5,208 nucleotides of DNA from positions 1 through 5,208 of the forward strand of contig DAOVMD010000251.1 of the NCBI GenBank assembly GCA_030630935.1, read 5' to 3'. The notes under the pieces were generated by a model. That model did not search any database and was not told the origin of the DNA. It saw only the letters and a list, made by a program, of their open reading frames with translations. The DNA is from Candidatus Mcinerneyibacteriota bacterium. Its GTDB lineage: Bacteria; AUK180; JAQVHJ01. A program made the position numbers and the translations under genes. Below, piece by piece: positions 1-5,208 of this stretch (positions within the stretch are counted from its first letter, which is position 1; every line of letters starts with the position of its first letter).

Positions 1-198
1 GTTTATATTGGGACTGTATTTTATGTTATAGGTAACCATAGTTGAATTTTCCGTATCAAGATTAATTGGATAACTTACTCTATTAACAATGGTCTTTTCA
101 GGGGTCATGAATTCAAATTCGATTGAGGTTGCAGTTGTATTACCGGAATTAAATATTTCAACAGGAATGGAATATGAACTTTCAAGCCCGACTTCTAA
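1..198 (-). other. Start of a CARDB/NEW3-like beta-sandwich (residues ~1456-1521, incomplete)
   Basis: The sequence has alternating strands around S-I-P-V-E-I-F-N-S-G-N and T-S-I-E-F-E-F, then a strand with V-S-Y-P-I and a Ser/Thr-rich T-M-V-T-Y-N-I. The phrase 'V-x-I-x-N-S-G-N-T-x-A' is typical of CARDB or NEW3-type domains, in which a polar N-x-G-N turn links two strands. The domain is cut by the window edge. The upstream paralogous gene lacks it. Confidence 0.5.
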
Positions 199-3100
199 AA
201 TCTTATCCCTGCCATCTTCTTTCTTTGCCCAAGAAATGATATCCCGGATCAATCGGATATCGTAAATGGAACCAATGTATTGTCCAAAGGCATAGTCTCC
301 GTATAAAGATGAAACGATTACTTTACCGGTTCCATGCGGATACATCAGCATACAGGGCTGGCTATTTGACCGACGTCTTAAAAGGATCTTGGAGTCATCG
401 GGGTATTCAGTGAAGAATCCGTCAAAGTTAGCAGTTGTTGGATTGTAGAATATACTGGACAGCATAGGATTCCAGGAATCAACATAAGCAGAGAAACTGT
501 AGCAACTCTGGTCTTCAGACCACCCGAAACCGTTCGGAGAACCAGGGAGTACAGTAAAATCATCTCCCCTCTGTTGACTGAAAACAAAAAGGATTCCGCC
601 GTTTGAAACGAAATCGTCAAGTTTCTGCTTGAATTCTAAGTCACCCCCGCGGCCGTATAACGCACCCGAAGGAACAAAGATTAACTTCGTAAGTTCTAAT
701 GCTTCAATTGGGTTCCAGTCAGGGATGTAATATAACTGTGTAGGATTAAGAAGGTTCGTTACCATAACATCCAATGCCGGATATGTACCTGATAACAGGA
801 TACCGGATTGATATCCTTTGAGATAACCCTCGTAAGTAGGATTATAATAATCATAAGGTACATAAGTTGACTTTGTTGTTGATCTCGATACCAAATCAGG
901 TGATGACAATAAAACTTTATCACCGTTTAATATATCCTTCTCTAATACACCGTTATTGCTTTCAATAACTGACCGGGACTCGGTTTCATAATTTTCAAAA
1001 TCTTCTGAATATAAATCTATATCATCAGGATTATCAGGGTTACGACAGATTCCTGAACCACCTGACGGCTCATAAGAATACCACGATGCACCTGATGCTG
1101 TTTTACTTATGGCTTTATCGAATAGAGTGTTTCTTAAACTTCTGGTTGGGTCATTATAATAGGGATGCTGTTTAGTTTTATTGCCGGCTAAGTCGGTGGC
1201 ATAAGTATATTCATAATATCTCGGTGGGTTTCCAGGAGGAGCACAATTATTGTTATCCATTTCTTCCCTATTAACTACATATTGAACTTTAAAAGAGACC
1301 ATATAAGGTGAATGCTTTTCTTCTATACTAATATCCTTAATTATATCAATATTTACTAGTTCACTTTCCTTAATAGGAAATGTAGGTGCACTATTTTTAA
1401 CCCTATAAATAAATGCACTGTTAACCAATGGATTCAATAACCTTTCAATACTCTCCTGATTATCTGGATCATAAAGGCCAGAACCACTTTTTTTATCGTC
1501 TACAGTAAATACTTCTGAATGAATTCCTTGTACATTGGAAATAGGAAATTTTTTCTTATCTATTGTTGGGGGAGTTCTATCTATATAGACTCTTCTCTTA
1601 ATTCCTTCTTTATTAAGAACTTGTGTTATACAGCTTTCATCACTATAAAATTTAACAATAACTTCGTACTCACCAGAATCTTTAAAAATTAAATTGTCTT
1701 CACTATCTTTTTCTAAAAAATTAACCTCTGTTAAAAAACAATTATCATGTATATCATTTGCACTCGCTAGTTTTATTGTATGTACAATCGAACTAGTTTC
1801 AATATTCTTAAACTCAATCTTTAACCCATTTATATTATTATCCTCCCAATAAGGAATACCAATGTTTATCCTGCCTCCTAATAATGGACCATCTAAATCT
1901 TTCCTGAATGAAACAATAGAATAGTTATTTTCATTTTCATTATTTATTTTCTCAAAAAAAGGAACAGCAAGATCATAATAAATAATTGGATCATTATCAC
2001 CATGATTCCAATTATGATCAGCTCCAACAAGTTGATTTGACATATCTCTAAATCCGGAAACCTTAATCCTAAATCTTCCAGCAAGATAATCCAAGTCCTT
2101 TTGTTCCAGTTTAGTTAAATCAAGTTCTCCCTCCCATGTATCATTTGGAATCATCCAAGTAGTAAATTTACCTTCAACGATATTATTAGATTCAGCATTA
2201 TTAATAAACTCTTTCCATTCATTTTCTTCTCCATCTAAATCCTTTTTTAGAAAGACAACAGAATCTTTTATAACATTATAATCATTAAATGAATACATAT
2301 CAACATGCTTATCATTAGAAGTCTTATAAAACGCCATTGATTCATTCATCGTAATTAATATTTTAATTTTTTGTTTTTCCACAATTTCATATTGAGTTTT
2401 TTCTATATCATTTGCATTATCTATCAAACCATCATTATCCTTGTCAATATCACTATCTAAAAATCCATCCCTATCATAATCATAAATACTACTATTTGAA
2501 TCTAAAAAATTAACAATTTTATTCCCATCAACATCTCCATCACAAAATATAATTTCATCTTGCTCATTTTTTATTTCAATACGATATACAAATGCCGGAG
2601 CTAAAGCTTTATAGAGATTTACCTTCCCATGACCTACTCTACCTTCTGGTTCCATATATTTCTTCAGGAATAAACCTGATGTATAATACTTTCTATATAC
2701 AGGATCTACTGATGAGAATAATAAATACTTATAACGTTGCATTATATCACCATGATTTCCAAAATTCGCTTGATTAATAAATTGATATGTATCTAAATTA
2801 GGGAATTTCCTCATGATTAACGATAATGTTGCAGTGACTATAGGGGCGGCCATTGAGCACCCTTTTCCATTGTTACATCTATCATGTTGTTCCCAATTCT
2901 TATGTTTAATTGTAGTATAAATATCTTCTCCAGGAGCACAAATATCAGGTTTCTTCTTAGCATCTGTTGGATAAAATTCCCCTTTTTTATTTTTTGATGT
3001 TGTAAATCCAACTTTAATTAATTTTTTATCTACAATTTGGTTAGACGCGATCAATTGTGCATGATCACTTTCATTTGACATTGTTGCAACAATCAATCCA

Positions 3101-4563
3101 TTATATTTACTAAAAAAATCACTAAATATTTCCTTAAATGGCAAAGTAAAATCCTGAGAAATATTAGTTAATTTAATTTCAGGAAATTCGTTAATTTTTT
3201 TTAGGCAATTTTTAGTATAATCTTTATCATAAAATTTATGTATAACTCCGGTATCCATCTTTTGTTTGTAATAATCTATCAATGCTAAATATCTAGCATT
3301 GTTATCAATTCCAATAATTTTTTTCTCATTCCAATCAGCACAGATAATTCCAGTTACCATCGTACCATGACCATCCCCTATACTATCGGAACCAATAATG
3401 GTATCATTCTCATCAACTGACCAATCTTTAATCTCTTCTAACTCATCAAAGCCACAATATCCAGGTTTAACAATCGAATTATTATTTAAATCTTTAATTG
3501 TAACATTAATAGCTTTTTTATTTAACATATTTCCATTATTATAAAAGTACAATTCTTTATGGTTTGTATTTACTCCTGAATCTAAAATAGCAATTGAATT
3601 TTGACCAATTTCAGGATAATATAATAGCGCTTCTTTAAAAGATATTCCTCTACTTGTTCCATCTTTTAAATACCATTGCTTTTTTGTATTATCAGATGGA
3701 TTATAATAACAAGGATCATTTGGCTCTTCTAAATTATCCTTTATCTCACCATAACCTGAGAATGTTACATATTCAATTATTGATTCATCTTGAAGCTGTA
3801 AATATATATCTATAAAGGAATTTTCATCTAAAACCTTAAAATTATTTCCCCAGCCATTAATAAATTTACCTTGAATTTCTAAATTATGCATAATACAAAA
3901 TTCTTTTATATCCTTTTCAGAATAATCTTTCTTAAATTTAACTGTTAATATATTGTTACGAATTGGTCGATAATAATCTTGGCTAAATTCCAGTAATGGA
4001 TTAAGATTCGTTAATATTCTAATTTCAAATTTATAATAATCTTTTATTTTATCAGACCATAATTTTAATTCGTGGTAATCTTCATTCATAAAATATGAAT
4101 ATTTATCCCTCAATTTATCTTGATCGGGTACAATTAAGTAGTAATTCACATATTTGTCAGTTTCTTTCTTTCGATAAATTTTACAATTACTATCTTTAAT
4201 TATTTTATCCACTTCTGCTGCTAAAGAGTCTGGATATTCTTCTCCATTAAACACTGATTTATCAAAACCTGTCAATTTCCAAATCTCAACTTTTATATGC
4301 CATTTAATGTCTTGTTTATCAACACCGATTCTATATAAGTTTGTATATTCACCAAATTTATCACTGAAATGCGTATTGTGTCTATCAATATATTCCTCGT
4401 ATTTTTCGATTTGTTCATCCAATCCTGACCATTCCGGGTATTTTAATTCATTCTCTTCCTTAACCTGTTGCTGATTATTTGTGCAACTATTCATCATAAA
4501 AGAAAATACTAATACACTCGCAATTACAATAAACGCACTCCATAAAAGATATCTCTTCTTCAT
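1..4563 (-). CDS. Large multidomain subtilase (S8 family) lipoprotein, 3' end outside window
   Basis: This open frame of 1521 codons has no stop and leaves the window at its left edge. The ATG at 4561-4563 was chosen because AGGAG (4571-4575) lies 7 bases before it; the in-frame ATG at 4567-4569 has only one base of spacing. The order of parts is: export signal with cysteine 27; prodomain about 203-268; S8 protease about 305-655 with Asp328, His399, Asn497 and Ser570; Asp-rich calcium-type loops 675-719; Ig-like modules about 724-1135; an amidotransferase-like fold about 1230-1455; and the start of a beta-sandwich. Subtilases hydrolyse peptide bonds with a serine nucleophile and are usually made as inactive zymogens. 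Localisation on the outer face of a membrane is inferred from the signal. It is much longer than a typical subtilisin (about 380 residues). The first two thirds are far more AT-rich than the last third. Subtilase identity is very secure; substrate is unknown. Confidence 0.95.
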   Translation of the reverse strand, partial: MKKRYLLWSAFIVIASVLVFSFMMNSCTNNQQQVKEENELKYPEWSGLDEQIEKYEEYIDRHNTHFSDKFGEYTNLYRIGVDKQDIKWHIKVEIWKLTGFDKSVFNGEEYPDSLAAEVDKIIKDSNCKIYRKKETDKYVNYYLIVPDQDKLRDKYSYFMNEDYHELKLWSDKIKDYYKFEIRILTNLNPLLEFSQDYYRPIRNNILTVKFKKDYSEKDIKEFCIMHNLEIQGKFINGWGNNFKVLDENSFIDIYLQLQDESIIEYVTFSGYGEIKDNLEEPNDPCYYNPSDNTKKQWYLKDGTSRGISFKEALLYYPEIGQNSIAILDSGVNTNHKELYFYNNGNMLNKKAINVTIKDLNNNSIVKPGYCGFDELEEIKDWSVDENDTIIGSDSIGDGHGTMVTGIICADWNEKKIIGIDNNARYLALIDYYKQKMDTGVIHKFYDKDYTKNCLKKINEFPEIKLTNISQDFTLPFKEIFSDFFSKYNGLIVATMSNESDHAQLIASNQIVDKKLIKVGFTTSKNKKGEFYPTDAKKKPDICAPGEDIYTTIKHKNWEQHDRCNNGKGCSMAAPIVTATLSLIMRKFPNLDTYQFINQANFGNHGDIMQRYKYLLFSSVDPVYRKYYTSGLFLKKYMEPEGRVGHGKVNLYKALAPAFVYRIEIKNEQDEIIFCDGDVDGNKIVNFLDSNSSIYDYDRDGFLDSDIDKDNDGLIDNANDIEKTQYEIVEKQKIKILITMNESMAFYKTSNDKHVDMYSFNDYNVIKDSVVFLKKDLDGEENEWKEFINNAESNNIVEGKFTTWMIPNDTWEGELDLTKLEQKDLDYLAGRFRIKVSGFRDMSNQLVGADHNWNHGDNDPIIYYDLAVPFFEKINNENENNYSIVSFRKDLDGPLLGGRINIGIPYWEDNNINGLKIEFKNIETSSIVHTIKLASANDIHDNCFLTEVNFLEKDSEDNLIFKDSGEYEVIVKFYSDESCITQVLNKEGIKRRVYIDRTPPTIDKKKFPISNVQGIHSEVFTVDDKKSGSGLYDPDNQESIERLLNPLVNSAFIYRVKNSAPTFPIKESELVNIDIIKDISIEEKHSPYMVSFKVQYVVNREEMDNNNCAPPGNPPRYYEYTYATDLAGNKTKQHPYYNDPTRSLRNTLFDKAISKTASGASWYSYEPSGGSGICRNPDNPDDIDLYSEDFENYETESRSVIESNNGVLEKDILNGDKVLLSSPDLVSRSTTKSTYVPYDYYNPTYEGYLKGYQSGILLSGTYPALDVMVTNLLNPTQLYYIPDWNPIEALELTKLIFVPSGALYGRGGDLEFKQKLDDFVSNGGILFVFSQQRGDDFTVLPGSPNGFGWSEDQSCYSFSAYVDSWNPMLSSIFYNPTTANFDGFFTEYPDDSKILLRRRSNSQPCMLMYPHGTGKVIVSSLYGDYAFGQYIGSIYDIRLIRDIISWAKKEDGRDKILEVGLESSYSIPVEIFNSGNTTATSIEFEFMTPEKTIVNRVSYPINLDTENSTMVTYNIKYSPNIN
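199..876 (-). other. Glutamine-amidotransferase-like (ThuA/DUF4350-like) fold domain (residues ~1230-1455)
   Basis: The pattern is ALDVMVTN, then LTKLIFVPSGAL, then LDDFVSNGGILFVFS, then HGTGKVIVSSLYGDYAFG, then a terminal helix RDIISWAKK. This is the strand-helix order of flavodoxin-like class I amidotransferase relatives found in exported proteins. They typically carry 'hydrophobic strand, Gly-Gly, hydrophobic strand' and end with a 'G-x-G-x-V' strand and a helix. No GxCxG nucleophile is present, so amidotransferase activity is not expected and a binding role is more likely. Residues about 1329-1453 are nearly identical to the tail of the neighbouring gene. The family name is an inference from the pattern. 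Confidence 0.55.
204..581. repeat. Copy A of a 378-base near-identical coding repeat (inside the protease gene)
   Basis: This aligns without gaps to 4831-5208 at a constant offset of 4627 bases, in the same orientation, with 28 mismatches by hand count (about 93% identity). The match reaches the right window edge, so the true repeat is probably longer and would extend leftwards in protein terms through more of the amidotransferase-like domain. It ends sharply after the Gly-Arg-Asp codons. Confidence 0.95.
1159..2394 (-). other. Tandem Ig-like beta-sandwich region (residues ~724-1135)
   Basis: The region alternates short hydrophobic strands with charged turns. Two modules share the signature [VI]V-x-F-x-K-D-L-D-G at residues 769-778 and 883-892, 114 residues apart, which suggests a repeated domain. 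A third module begins at VYIDRTPPTI (992-1001) and ends at YATDLAGN (1121-1128), the typical start and end of bacterial Ig-like domains. Such modules act as stalks or binding surfaces. Assignment of the third is fairly firm; the first two rest on the internal repeat and strand pattern. Confidence 0.6.
2407..2541 (-). other. Asp-rich calcium-binding linker, thrombospondin type 3 / dockerin-like (residues ~675-719)
   Basis: Right after the protease domain come repeated D-x-D-x-D-G loops: DGDVDGNKIVNFLD, then DYDRDGFLD, then DIDKDNDGLID. The spacing of Asp and Gly is that of EF-hand-type or thrombospondin type 3 calcium loops, which stiffen extracellular linkers when calcium is bound. The first unit, with D-V-D-G-N and a following hydrophobic I-V-N-F, resembles half of a dockerin. 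A complete dockerin pair is not seen, so a structural linker is the more likely role. Confidence 0.8.
2599..3651 (-). other. S8 subtilase catalytic domain (residues ~305-655)
   Basis: Four hallmark segments occur in the right order. Asp328 lies in AILDSGV (codon 3580-3582). His399 lies in GDGHGTMVTG (3367-3369). The oxyanion-hole Asn497 lies in IVATMSNES (3073-3075). The nucleophile Ser570 lies in GCSMAAPIVTA (2854-2856). The domain also has PDICAPGEDI before the serine and closes with GHGKVNLYKAL, the usual end of an S8 domain. Two deviations stand out: Cys569 replaces the usual Thr of GTS, and Met-Ser replaces Ala-Gly before the oxyanion Asn. All residues needed for catalysis are present, so I expect an active enzyme. 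Confidence 0.95.
3760..3957 (-). other. Subtilase prodomain, I9/fervidolysin-like (residues ~203-268)
   Basis: Residues about 203-268 show the usual prodomain pattern: an opening beta strand (NNILTVKFKK), a helix, a middle strand, and a last strand ending in ESIIEYV. It is followed by N-D-P-C-Y-Y and Lys-Gln-Trp-Tyr-Leu (about 282-299), matching the common junction of subtilases (PNDPxxxxQW). Prodomains of this kind chaperone folding and block the active site until autocleavage. Processing probably occurs between about 268 and 295. Residues 34-202, between the signal and this prodomain, are extra charged sequence that I cannot assign to a family. Confidence 0.75.
4486..4563 (-). other. Signal peptide, probable lipoprotein type (residues 1-26)
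   Basis: The N-terminus is MKKRYLLW followed by an uninterrupted hydrophobic stretch to about residue 24, then M-N-S-Cys27 and a polar Thr/Asn/Gln/Glu-rich segment. The Lys-Lys-Arg head, hydrophobic core and cysteine at the cleavage point fit signal peptidase II processing, with Cys27 as the lipid-carrying residue. Asn at -2 and Met at -3 are not the classic Leu-Ala/Ser-Gly/Ala, so the lipobox is only a loose match. Ordinary signal peptidase I cleavage or an uncleaved anchor are alternatives. No Asp follows the cysteine. Confidence 0.7.
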
Positions 4564-4682
4564 GAACATACTCCTGATTTGATTTTTAATTTGATTAGTG
4601 TTAATAAATTATTAATGAAACCTTTTCTTAATTGTTCTAGTTTTATTTTGTATTTTTTTAGCTCTACTTCAGTCCCAAACAT
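4560..4682 (-). CDS. Small basic 40-residue ORF, probable leader gene coupled to the protease
   Basis: The frame starts at ATG 4680-4682, is preceded directly by an in-frame TGA, and ends with TGA at 4560-4562. That stop overlaps the protease start as ATGA. It has its own ribosome binding site, AAGGA at 4690-4694, 7 bases before the ATG. The transcript predicted from the promoter would begin only about 24 bases upstream. The product begins MFGTEVELKKYKIKLEQL and is rich in Lys, with a hydrophobic stretch (FINNLLTLI) in the middle; it looks like an amphipathic helix with net positive charge. I recognise no family. Possible roles are a leader peptide that controls protease translation by coupling, or a small partner protein. 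The frame could also be chance in AT-rich DNA, but the signals on both ends make that less likely. The protease ribosome binding site lies inside this frame. Confidence 0.55.
   Translation of the reverse strand: MFGTEVELKKYKIKLEQLRKGFINNLLTLIKLKIKSGVCS
4571..4575 (-). promoter_or_regulatory. Ribosome binding site of the protease gene
   Basis: AGGAG is followed by 7 bases and then the ATG at 4561-4563. The same motif is one base from the ATG at 4567-4569, too close to serve it, so this site decides the start. It is located inside the small upstream ORF, so ribosomes translating that ORF would pass over it. Confidence 0.85.
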
Positions 4683-4689
4683 TCACACT

Positions 4690-4694
4690 TCCTT
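4690..4694 (-). promoter_or_regulatory. Ribosome binding site of the 40-codon ORF
   Basis: AAGGA is followed by 7 bases and then the ATG at 4680-4682. Its strength and spacing match the site used by the protease and are the main reason to treat the short frame as translated. Confidence 0.6.
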
Positions 4695-4712
4695 TTCTAT
4701 AATTTGATTCGT

Positions 4713-4741
4713 AGTATATCATAAACCTACACCTTTGTCAA
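4713..4741 (-). promoter_or_regulatory. Near-consensus sigma-70 promoter with extended -10
   Basis: On the minus strand TTGACA (4736-4741, 6 of 6) is followed after 17 bases by TATACT (4713-4718, 5 of 6). TG sits one base before the -10 hexamer, forming an extended -10. Transcription should start near 4705-4707, about 24 bases before the small ORF and about 140 bases before the protease start. It lies between the two large genes and gives the protease its own transcription unit. Confidence 0.85.
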
Positions 4742-4781
4742 GAAATAATCTCGATTTTTAAAGAACAATTGCTTCGCTTTT

Positions 4782-4816
4782 AATTCTTCATTATTCATTG
4801 TTCATTCTTCATTCTT
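4782..4816 (-). repeat. Heptamer tandem repeat, 5 units of AANAATG
   Basis: Read on the minus strand the units are AAGAATG, AAGAATG, AACAATG, AATAATG and AAGAATT: five heptamers with a variable third base and a mismatch in the last. The stop codon of the upstream gene falls within the second and third units, so its last four residues (KNEE) are mostly repeat-encoded. Heptanucleotide tandem arrays of this kind are known from several bacterial genomes. The repeat lies about 40 bases upstream of the -35 box. Confidence 0.8.
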
Positions 4817-5208
4817 ACTTATTAAATAACTGTCCCGGCCTTCTTCTTTCTTTGCCCACGAAATAATATCCCGGATCAATCGGATATCGTAAATAGAACC
4901 AATGTATTGTCCAAAGGCATAGTCACCGTATAAAGATGAAACGATTACTTTACCGGTTCCATGCGGATACATCAGCATACATGGCTGATTATTTGATCGA
5001 CGTCTTAAAAGGATCGTGGAGTCATCGGGATATTCAGTAAAGAATCCGTCAAAGTTTGCAGTGGTTGGATTGTAGAATATACTGGACAGCATAGGATTCC
5101 AGGAATCGACATAAGCAGAGAAACTGTAGCAGCTCTGGTCTTCAGACCAGCCGAAGCCGTCAGGAGAACCCGGGAGTACAGTAAAATCTTCCCCGCGCTG
5201 CTGACTGA
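4802..5208 (-). CDS. C-terminal end of a paralogous exported protein (amidotransferase-like domain), 5' end outside window
   Basis: The frame enters from the right edge and stops at TGA 4802-4804, giving the last 135 complete codons. It covers the second half of the same amidotransferase-like domain found in the protease: SPDGFGWSEDQSC, FDGFFTEYPDD, HGTGKVIVSSLYGDYAFG, RDIISWAKK. Over 125 aligned residues only five differ (Asp/Glu twice, Asn/Asp, Lys/Thr, Ser/Asn). After GRD the two proteins have nothing in common: this one ends SYLISKNEE, whereas the protease continues into another domain. The last codons lie in a heptamer tandem repeat. The ATG at 5090-5092 is internal, since homology continues well upstream of it. 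The N-terminal part is unknown; it may or may not be another protease. It lies 61 bases upstream of the promoter of the next unit. Confidence 0.9.
   Translation of the reverse strand, partial: SQQRGEDFTVLPGSPDGFGWSEDQSCYSFSAYVDSWNPMLSSIFYNPTTANFDGFFTEYPDDSTILLRRRSNNQPCMLMYPHGTGKVIVSSLYGDYAFGQYIGSIYDIRLIRDIISWAKKEEGRDSYLISKNEE
4831..5208. repeat. Copy B of the 378-base coding repeat (tail of upstream gene)
   Basis: This is the partner of 204-581. Of 28 differences 22 are silent and six change five codons. Copy B is cut by the window edge. It is followed downstream by unrelated sequence and the heptamer array instead of the beta-sandwich coding sequence seen after copy A. Confidence 0.95.

What the first reader, a model, noticed from the sequence alone, without database searches (positions are those of the whole stretch)
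204..5208. Shared 378-base module in two adjacent genes, with 22 of 28 differences silent
Copy A (204-581) and copy B (4831-5208) align without gaps. Only six of 28 substitutions change amino acids, giving five differences in 125 residues. This shows that both frames are translated and under purifying selection, and that the module is either a recent duplicate or is kept similar by gene conversion.
Basis: seen in the sequence. Interest (0 to 1): 0.65.

Follow-up and report, generated by a model that had tools for sequence, protein, structure and literature searches.

The report
Exchangeable module in adjacent giant secreted-enzyme genes
Two neighbouring bacterial genes that begin with different wall- or protein-cutting enzymes share one stretch of DNA; relatives in other phyla suggest that this stretch is the fixed joint of a cassette system in which enzyme heads are swapped, a mirror image of the tail-swapping Rhs and CDI toxin loci.

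Summary
In detail: 204-581 and 4831-5208 align without gaps, 28 differences, 5 amino-acid changes (5 nonsynonymous and 23 silent, not 6 and 22), dN/dS about 0.06. The window is a whole contig of an incomplete genome, so copy B is cut by the contig end. The module is half of a GATase1-like domain with no invariant Cys or His. Gene A: lipoprotein signal, prodomain, subtilase, module. Gene B stops just after the module; its 5' part is probably on contig C275 (M23-like peptidase, about 384 bp gap). dS between A and B/C275 falls from 2.7 through 0.65 to 0.3 towards the module, so this is not simple duplication. A related subtilase gene in another genus is a significant A-like/C288-like mosaic. The same domain sits in giant proteins of many bacterial and archaeal phyla behind unrelated heads (subtilase, M23, amidase, lipase, Zn-phospholipase-like, transglutaminase, RHS). 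Copies cut off in or after the module lie upstream of the next cassette in five genomes. Enzyme heads and upstream partner genes co-vary across genomes. Best reading: a recombining cassette locus, mirror image of Rhs/CDI orphan arrays. Antagonistic function and partner immunity are inferred, not shown.

The parts
1..4569 (-). Gene A, 1523+ codons, open at the left contig end: lipoprotein-type signal (MNSC, residues 26-29), prodomain to about residue 300, subtilase S8 with D330, H401, S572 in DSGV / GHGT / GCSMAAP, Ca-binding/Ig-like linkers, GATase1-like module
   Evidence: triad read from sequence
175..852 (-). GATase1-like module of gene A (copy A, 204-581, is its C-terminal half)
965..1221 (-). 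Linker of gene A 84% identical to C275:1-257, the probable 5' part of gene B
4802..5208 (-). 3' end of gene B: module copy B (to 4831), then ...SYLISKNEE stop; 5' part off the contig
4787..4813 (-). (AATGAAN)n heptamer repeat at the truncated end of gene B; about 60 exact hits in the genome; same junction in the sister genus
4713..4741 (-). Sigma70-like promoter TTGACA-17-TATACT, start of the conserved cassette head
   Evidence: consensus match only; shuffles give 1.7 on average
4560..4682 (-). Short leader ORF of 40 aa, overlapping the start of gene A, conserved in front of C288, C275 and G001:C446 cassettes

Best explanation
The window holds the junction of two tandem cassettes of a modular secreted-protein locus. 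A cassette is: promoter and leader ORF; an upstream partner gene, or for the subtilase type a built-in prodomain; a variable N-terminal enzyme; a constant GATase1-like module; and, in full-length genes only, a constant tail of 2000-3000 residues (CARDB, beta-propeller, MG2). Gene B is a cassette cut off just after the module; gene A, next to it, continues past the module. The constant module (and the cassette head) provides homology through which neighbouring or incoming cassettes recombine or convert, putting a different enzyme head, with its partner, onto the tail. This is the mirror image of Rhs/CDI loci, where the C-terminal tip and a downstream immunity gene are swapped. Shown: shared module, purifying selection, graded divergence, mosaicism, truncated copies 5' of the next cassette, enzyme-partner co-variation. 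Inferred: that recombination switches heads on the tail, that partners protect the producer, and that the enzymes act on other cells.
For: A/B dS gradient 2.66 to 0.65 to 0.34. Mosaic G001 subtilase gene, A-like up to residue ~408 then C288-like, 0 of 1000 permutations. G061 tandem cassettes: flanks 82% and 87% identical, middle not alignable in DNA. G002: 95.6% over 1472 nt behind different heads; G060: 78.5% over the module only, truncated copy directly upstream of full-length one. Truncated copies followed by a new cassette in G000, G001, G002, G060, G061. Module dN/dS 0.1-0.3 in these pairs. Heads of unrelated families before the same module. Enzyme and partner similarity co-vary between genomes: 8 of 23 enzyme-similar pairs share partner type against 1 of 437 others. 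Second tail on C74 could belong to gene A.
Against: Gene B's 5' part and gene A's 3' part are off the contig; the C275 and C74 links are inferred. All array genomes are draft metagenome assemblies; cassettes in G002 carry frameshifts. No strain pair showing an actual head switch was available. Unlike Rhs orphans, truncated cassettes keep promoter and start, so they may simply be working proteins. The partner-enzyme test counts non-independent pairs, partly from related Nitrospirae. Many genomes have only one full-length gene and no array.
Confidence: 0.6

Rival explanations
1. Lineage-specific tandem duplication of a whole gene followed by ordinary divergence; the upstream copy lost its tail and the domain is conserved for structural reasons.
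For: Tandem same-strand position; low dN/dS; truncation at a genome-wide repeat.
Against: Enzyme heads differ (subtilase against M23-like) and dS, not only dN, is graded; mosaic homologue; variable middles between conserved flanks elsewhere.
Confidence: 0.15
2. Modular secreted exoenzymes for nutrition or wall remodelling that share an adaptor/tail domain; exchange of heads is general domain shuffling, partners are processing or binding factors, and there is no antagonism or immunity.
For: Heads are degradative enzymes; single full-length copies in many genomes; truncated copies retain promoter, leader and purifying selection.
Against: Partner co-variation with enzyme type and stand-alone prodomain lipoproteins and partner homologues without enzyme, in G000, look like immunity sets; arrays of truncated cassettes resemble conflict loci.
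Confidence: 0.2
3. Assembly artefact: contig C336 joins two strain variants of one gene.
For: Fragmented genome (471 contigs); copy B ends at the contig end.
Against: Copies have different 3' sequence; 23 silent of 28 changes; the same truncated-then-next-cassette junction, with the same repeat and head, occurs in the sister genus.
Confidence: 0.05

Closest known systems
Rhs orphan toxin cassettes (Salmonella rhs main/orphan, PMC3967940)
   Same: Full-length gene plus truncated copy sharing a short, 93-96% identical stretch next to an unrelated effector part; recombination there would fuse a new effector to the constant part (95% over 522 bp in Salmonella)
   Different: Here the variable part is N-terminal and the constant part C-terminal; truncated copies keep promoter and start and lack the tail; no RHS repeats in the G000 proteins
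CDI cdiA-CT/cdiI orphan arrays (PMC3150448)
   Same: Arrays of effector-plus-partner units with homology to the main gene
   Different: Partner gene lies upstream, units lie 5' of the full-length gene; immunity not shown
Polymorphic toxin systems in general (PMC3482391)
   Same: Constant body, many unrelated enzyme heads, one partner per head, partner-only loci
   Different: That survey states that (peptidase) toxin domains invariably occur at the C-terminus
VARTIG modules of Thermococcales (PMC8416519)
   Same: Large Ig/CARDB protein with a recombining variable part
   Different: Variable part is the C-terminal Ig domain; no GATase1-like module reported in the passages read; restricted to Thermococcales
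GATase1-like domains (ThuA-like, GH42 trimerisation domain)
   Same: Fold of the module; weak Pfam Glyco_hydro_42M match
   Different: No invariant Cys or His, so no amidotransferase triad; no Pfam or NCBIfam family covers it

Membership tests
Rhs/CDI polymorphic toxin locus | Constant body with polymorphic, unrelated effector domains | tested here: met
Rhs/CDI polymorphic toxin locus | Effector domain at the C-terminus | tested here: not met
   Enzyme heads are N-terminal to the module in all cases read
Rhs/CDI polymorphic toxin locus | Orphan cassettes with homology to the main gene | tested here: met
   Mirror-image form in five genomes
Rhs/CDI polymorphic toxin locus | Cognate immunity gene next to the effector part | tested here: inconclusive
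   Upstream partner gene co-varies with enzyme type; neutralisation not testable; the subtilase gene A has no partner gene
Rhs/CDI polymorphic toxin locus | RHS/YD or FHA repeats in the body | tested here: not met
   None in gene A or C288; RHS repeats precede the module only in ANME loci L063 and L082
Class I glutamine amidotransferase-like superfamily | GATase1-like fold | tested here: met
   AlphaFold pLDDT 71, pTM 0.75; Foldseek E ~1e-7 to GMP synthase subunit, ThuA-like, GH42 domains
Class I glutamine amidotransferase-like superfamily | Cys-His-Glu catalytic triad | tested here: not met
   No invariant Cys or His in 9 aligned modules
Subtilase S8 (gene A) | S8 domain with Asp-His-Ser | tested here: met
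   Pfam 3.5e-14, above cut-off; DSGV, GHGT, GCSMAAP at 330, 400, 570
Peptidase M23 (C275, probable head of gene B) | M23 domain | tested here: inconclusive
   E 3.9e-5 but 24.2 bits, under the 28.7 cut-off; HLGVD and HLH motifs present

The most novel reading that the evidence does not exclude
A polymorphic effector system with reversed polarity: interchangeable N-terminal enzyme heads, each with its own upstream partner, are recombined through a catalytically dead GATase1-like joint onto a giant surface tail, in several bacterial phyla and in archaea, with the truncated cassettes kept as expressed free enzymes and spare heads.
Probability: 0.3. Interest if true: 0.8.

Novelty: new variant of a known kind. 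Interest (0 to 1): 0.6.

Why it matters
Polymorphic toxin loci are described as swapping C-terminal tips with a downstream immunity gene. A mirror-image arrangement across uncultured bacteria and archaea would show that the same evolutionary logic works from the other end of the gene, would point to a family of unannotated giant surface proteins, and gives direct predictions (partner neutralises its own enzyme; heads switch on the tail) that can be tested.

Tried and rejected
Single-protein scan of genome contigs gave nothing; viral contigs gave no relative. Pfam, NCBIfam and PDB sequence searches do not recognise the module. Non-coding RNA or tRNA in the window: none. The heptamer repeat as a general truncation element: holds for G000 and G001 but not for G002 cassettes. 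Single tail per genome: rejected, G000 has two (C288, C74). Polarising substitutions with C288 gave A 2 silent/4 changing, B 14/1; too few and too saturated to build on. Literature search found no description of an N-terminal-swapping version, but the library lacks subscription journals.

Full report
Observation. The two copies align exactly as stated: 204-581 against 4831-5208, 378 bases, no gap, 28 substitutions. Twenty-three are at third codon positions and five amino acids differ. dN/dS is about 0.06. Similarity stops sharply at 204/4831. The other end is the end of the contig: the window is the whole of contig C336 of a 3.16-Mb, 471-contig, 80%-complete genome, called G000 here.

The two genes. 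Gene A (4569 to beyond 1, minus strand) has a lipoprotein-type signal, about 300 residues of prodomain, a subtilase S8 domain with all three catalytic residues, Ig-like and calcium-binding linkers, and the module. Gene B ends at 4802, just after the module, with ...SYLISKNEE. Its 5' part is off the contig. Contig C275 begins with 257 bases 84% identical to window 965-1221 and carries a 714-codon open frame with an M23-like head, running off exactly where about 384 bases would link it to copy B. This link is inferred. No other contig offers that stretch. The window's own gene A may continue on C74, a 5'-open 3064-residue frame that is 40% identical to the C288 tail, again by inference.

The module. 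Copies A and B are the C-terminal half of a domain of about 220 residues. An AlphaFold model (pLDDT 71, pTM 0.75) matches GATase1-like folds: GMP synthase subunit, ThuA-like proteins, GH42 trimerisation domains. The nine aligned members share 25 invariant residues but no Cys or His, so it is unlikely to be an amidotransferase. No curated family covers it. A profile-guided scan found 43 loci, in Nitrospirae, Omnitrophota, Elusimicrobia, Geobacteraceae, Clostridia, Methanosarcina, ANME archaea and others. Most are single genes for proteins of 2500-4900 residues with the module near the N-terminal third and a long tail of CARDB, propeller and MG2 domains.

Variable heads. Before the module stand unrelated domains: subtilase (gene A), M23 (C275, L055, L069), amidase_3 (L065), alpha/beta hydrolases (L050, L136, L137), Zn-phospholipase-C-like (L138), transglutaminase (L043, L057), RHS repeats (L063, L082).

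Arrays. In five genomes copies are cut off inside or soon after the module, and the next same-strand genes begin a new cassette: the window; G001 C307 and C446; G002 C106 (twice) and C74; G060 C59 and C28; G061 C45 and C239. Elusimicrobia G060 C59 is the clearest: truncated 753-residue gene, 300-residue partner, full-length 4356-residue gene. Identity between neighbours is confined to the module in G060 (78.5% over 674 nt). In G002 C106/C74 it is 95.6% over 1472 nt behind different heads. In G061 C239 it is confined to both flanks (82% and 87%) around a middle that does not align in DNA and is 37-54% identical in protein. Module pairs are under purifying selection, dN/dS 0.1-0.3.

Exchange. 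Between A and C275/B synonymous divergence falls along the gene: 2.66, 0.65, 0.34. One duplication would give one value. In the sister genus the subtilase-type gene of C446 resembles gene A up to residue about 408 and the M23-type C288 gene after it (MaxChi 57, 0 of 1000 permutations reach it). So the 3' module has moved between genes with different heads.

Cassette head and junction. Promoter, short leader ORF and the start AGGAG-ATGAAGAA are conserved before gene A, C288, C275 partner and the G001 C446 partner. Gene B's stop lies in a heptamer repeat, (AATGAAN)n, which is interspersed in all seven genomes of the class and absent from six outgroups. G001 holds one exact copy, and it lies at the truncated end of C446.

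Partners. Many cassettes have a secreted-protein gene just upstream of the enzyme gene. In pairs from different genomes, 8 of 23 with similar enzyme regions also have similar partners, against 1 of 437 without (Fisher 9e-11, pairs not independent); these include Nitrospirae-Elusimicrobia pairs. Gene A has no partner gene, but its prodomain region (residues 1 to about 300) has stand-alone lipoprotein homologues on C242, C308, C201 and C128, and C201 also carries a homologue of a G002 partner.

Interpretation. The geometry matches Rhs/CDI orphan arrays reflected end to end. There, one crossover in 522 bp of 95% identity fuses a new tip to the main gene (PMC3967940), and effector-plus-immunity units travel together (PMC3482391, which also states that peptidase toxin domains invariably lie at the C-terminus). 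Here the head is N-terminal and the partner upstream. Resemblance of layout is supported; membership is not claimed, because C-terminal placement and RHS repeats fail and immunity is untested. An ordinary exoenzyme family with shuffled heads remains possible.

Limits. All array genomes are draft assemblies; the C275 and C74 links are unproven; G002 cassettes have frameshifts; no direct switch between strains was seen.

Noticed in passing
window 4787-4813; L113-L132: Interspersed (AATGAAN)n heptamer repeat, 61 exact 3-unit hits in G000, often within a longer conserved element (...GCAAGTAAGAATGAA...TTTTGCATTA...CAATGC...TTGCTTAAGG); present in all seven genomes of the class, none in six outgroups.
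   Followed up: partly
window 4560-4682; L015 10561-10668; L014 3303-3392; L031 about 1160-1250: Conserved short leader ORF (...RKGFINNLLTLIKLKIKSG) after a TTGACA-17-TATACT promoter in front of cassettes; also a weak match on C66 near an outer-membrane receptor-like gene.
   Followed up: partly
L036 1573-2211, L037 4418-5182, L038 6318-7946, L039 5006-5914: Stand-alone lipoproteins homologous to the prodomain of gene A without a protease domain (two copies fused in C201): possible protease inhibitors.
   Followed up: partly
L063 4760-10003, L082 3-2780: In ANME archaea the same GATase1-like module directly follows RHS repeats.
   Followed up: no
L035 9707-11623: G000 C46 copy of the module has a signal peptide but no enzyme head and a short tail.
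   Followed up: no
L032 about 2700, L034 about 8450: G002 truncated cassettes each carry a frameshift at a different place: decay or assembly error.
   Followed up: no
window 204-581 / 4831-5208: Polarised by C288, gene A's branch has 2 silent and 4 changing substitutions, gene B's 14 and 1; suggestive of different selection but few and saturated.
   Followed up: partly
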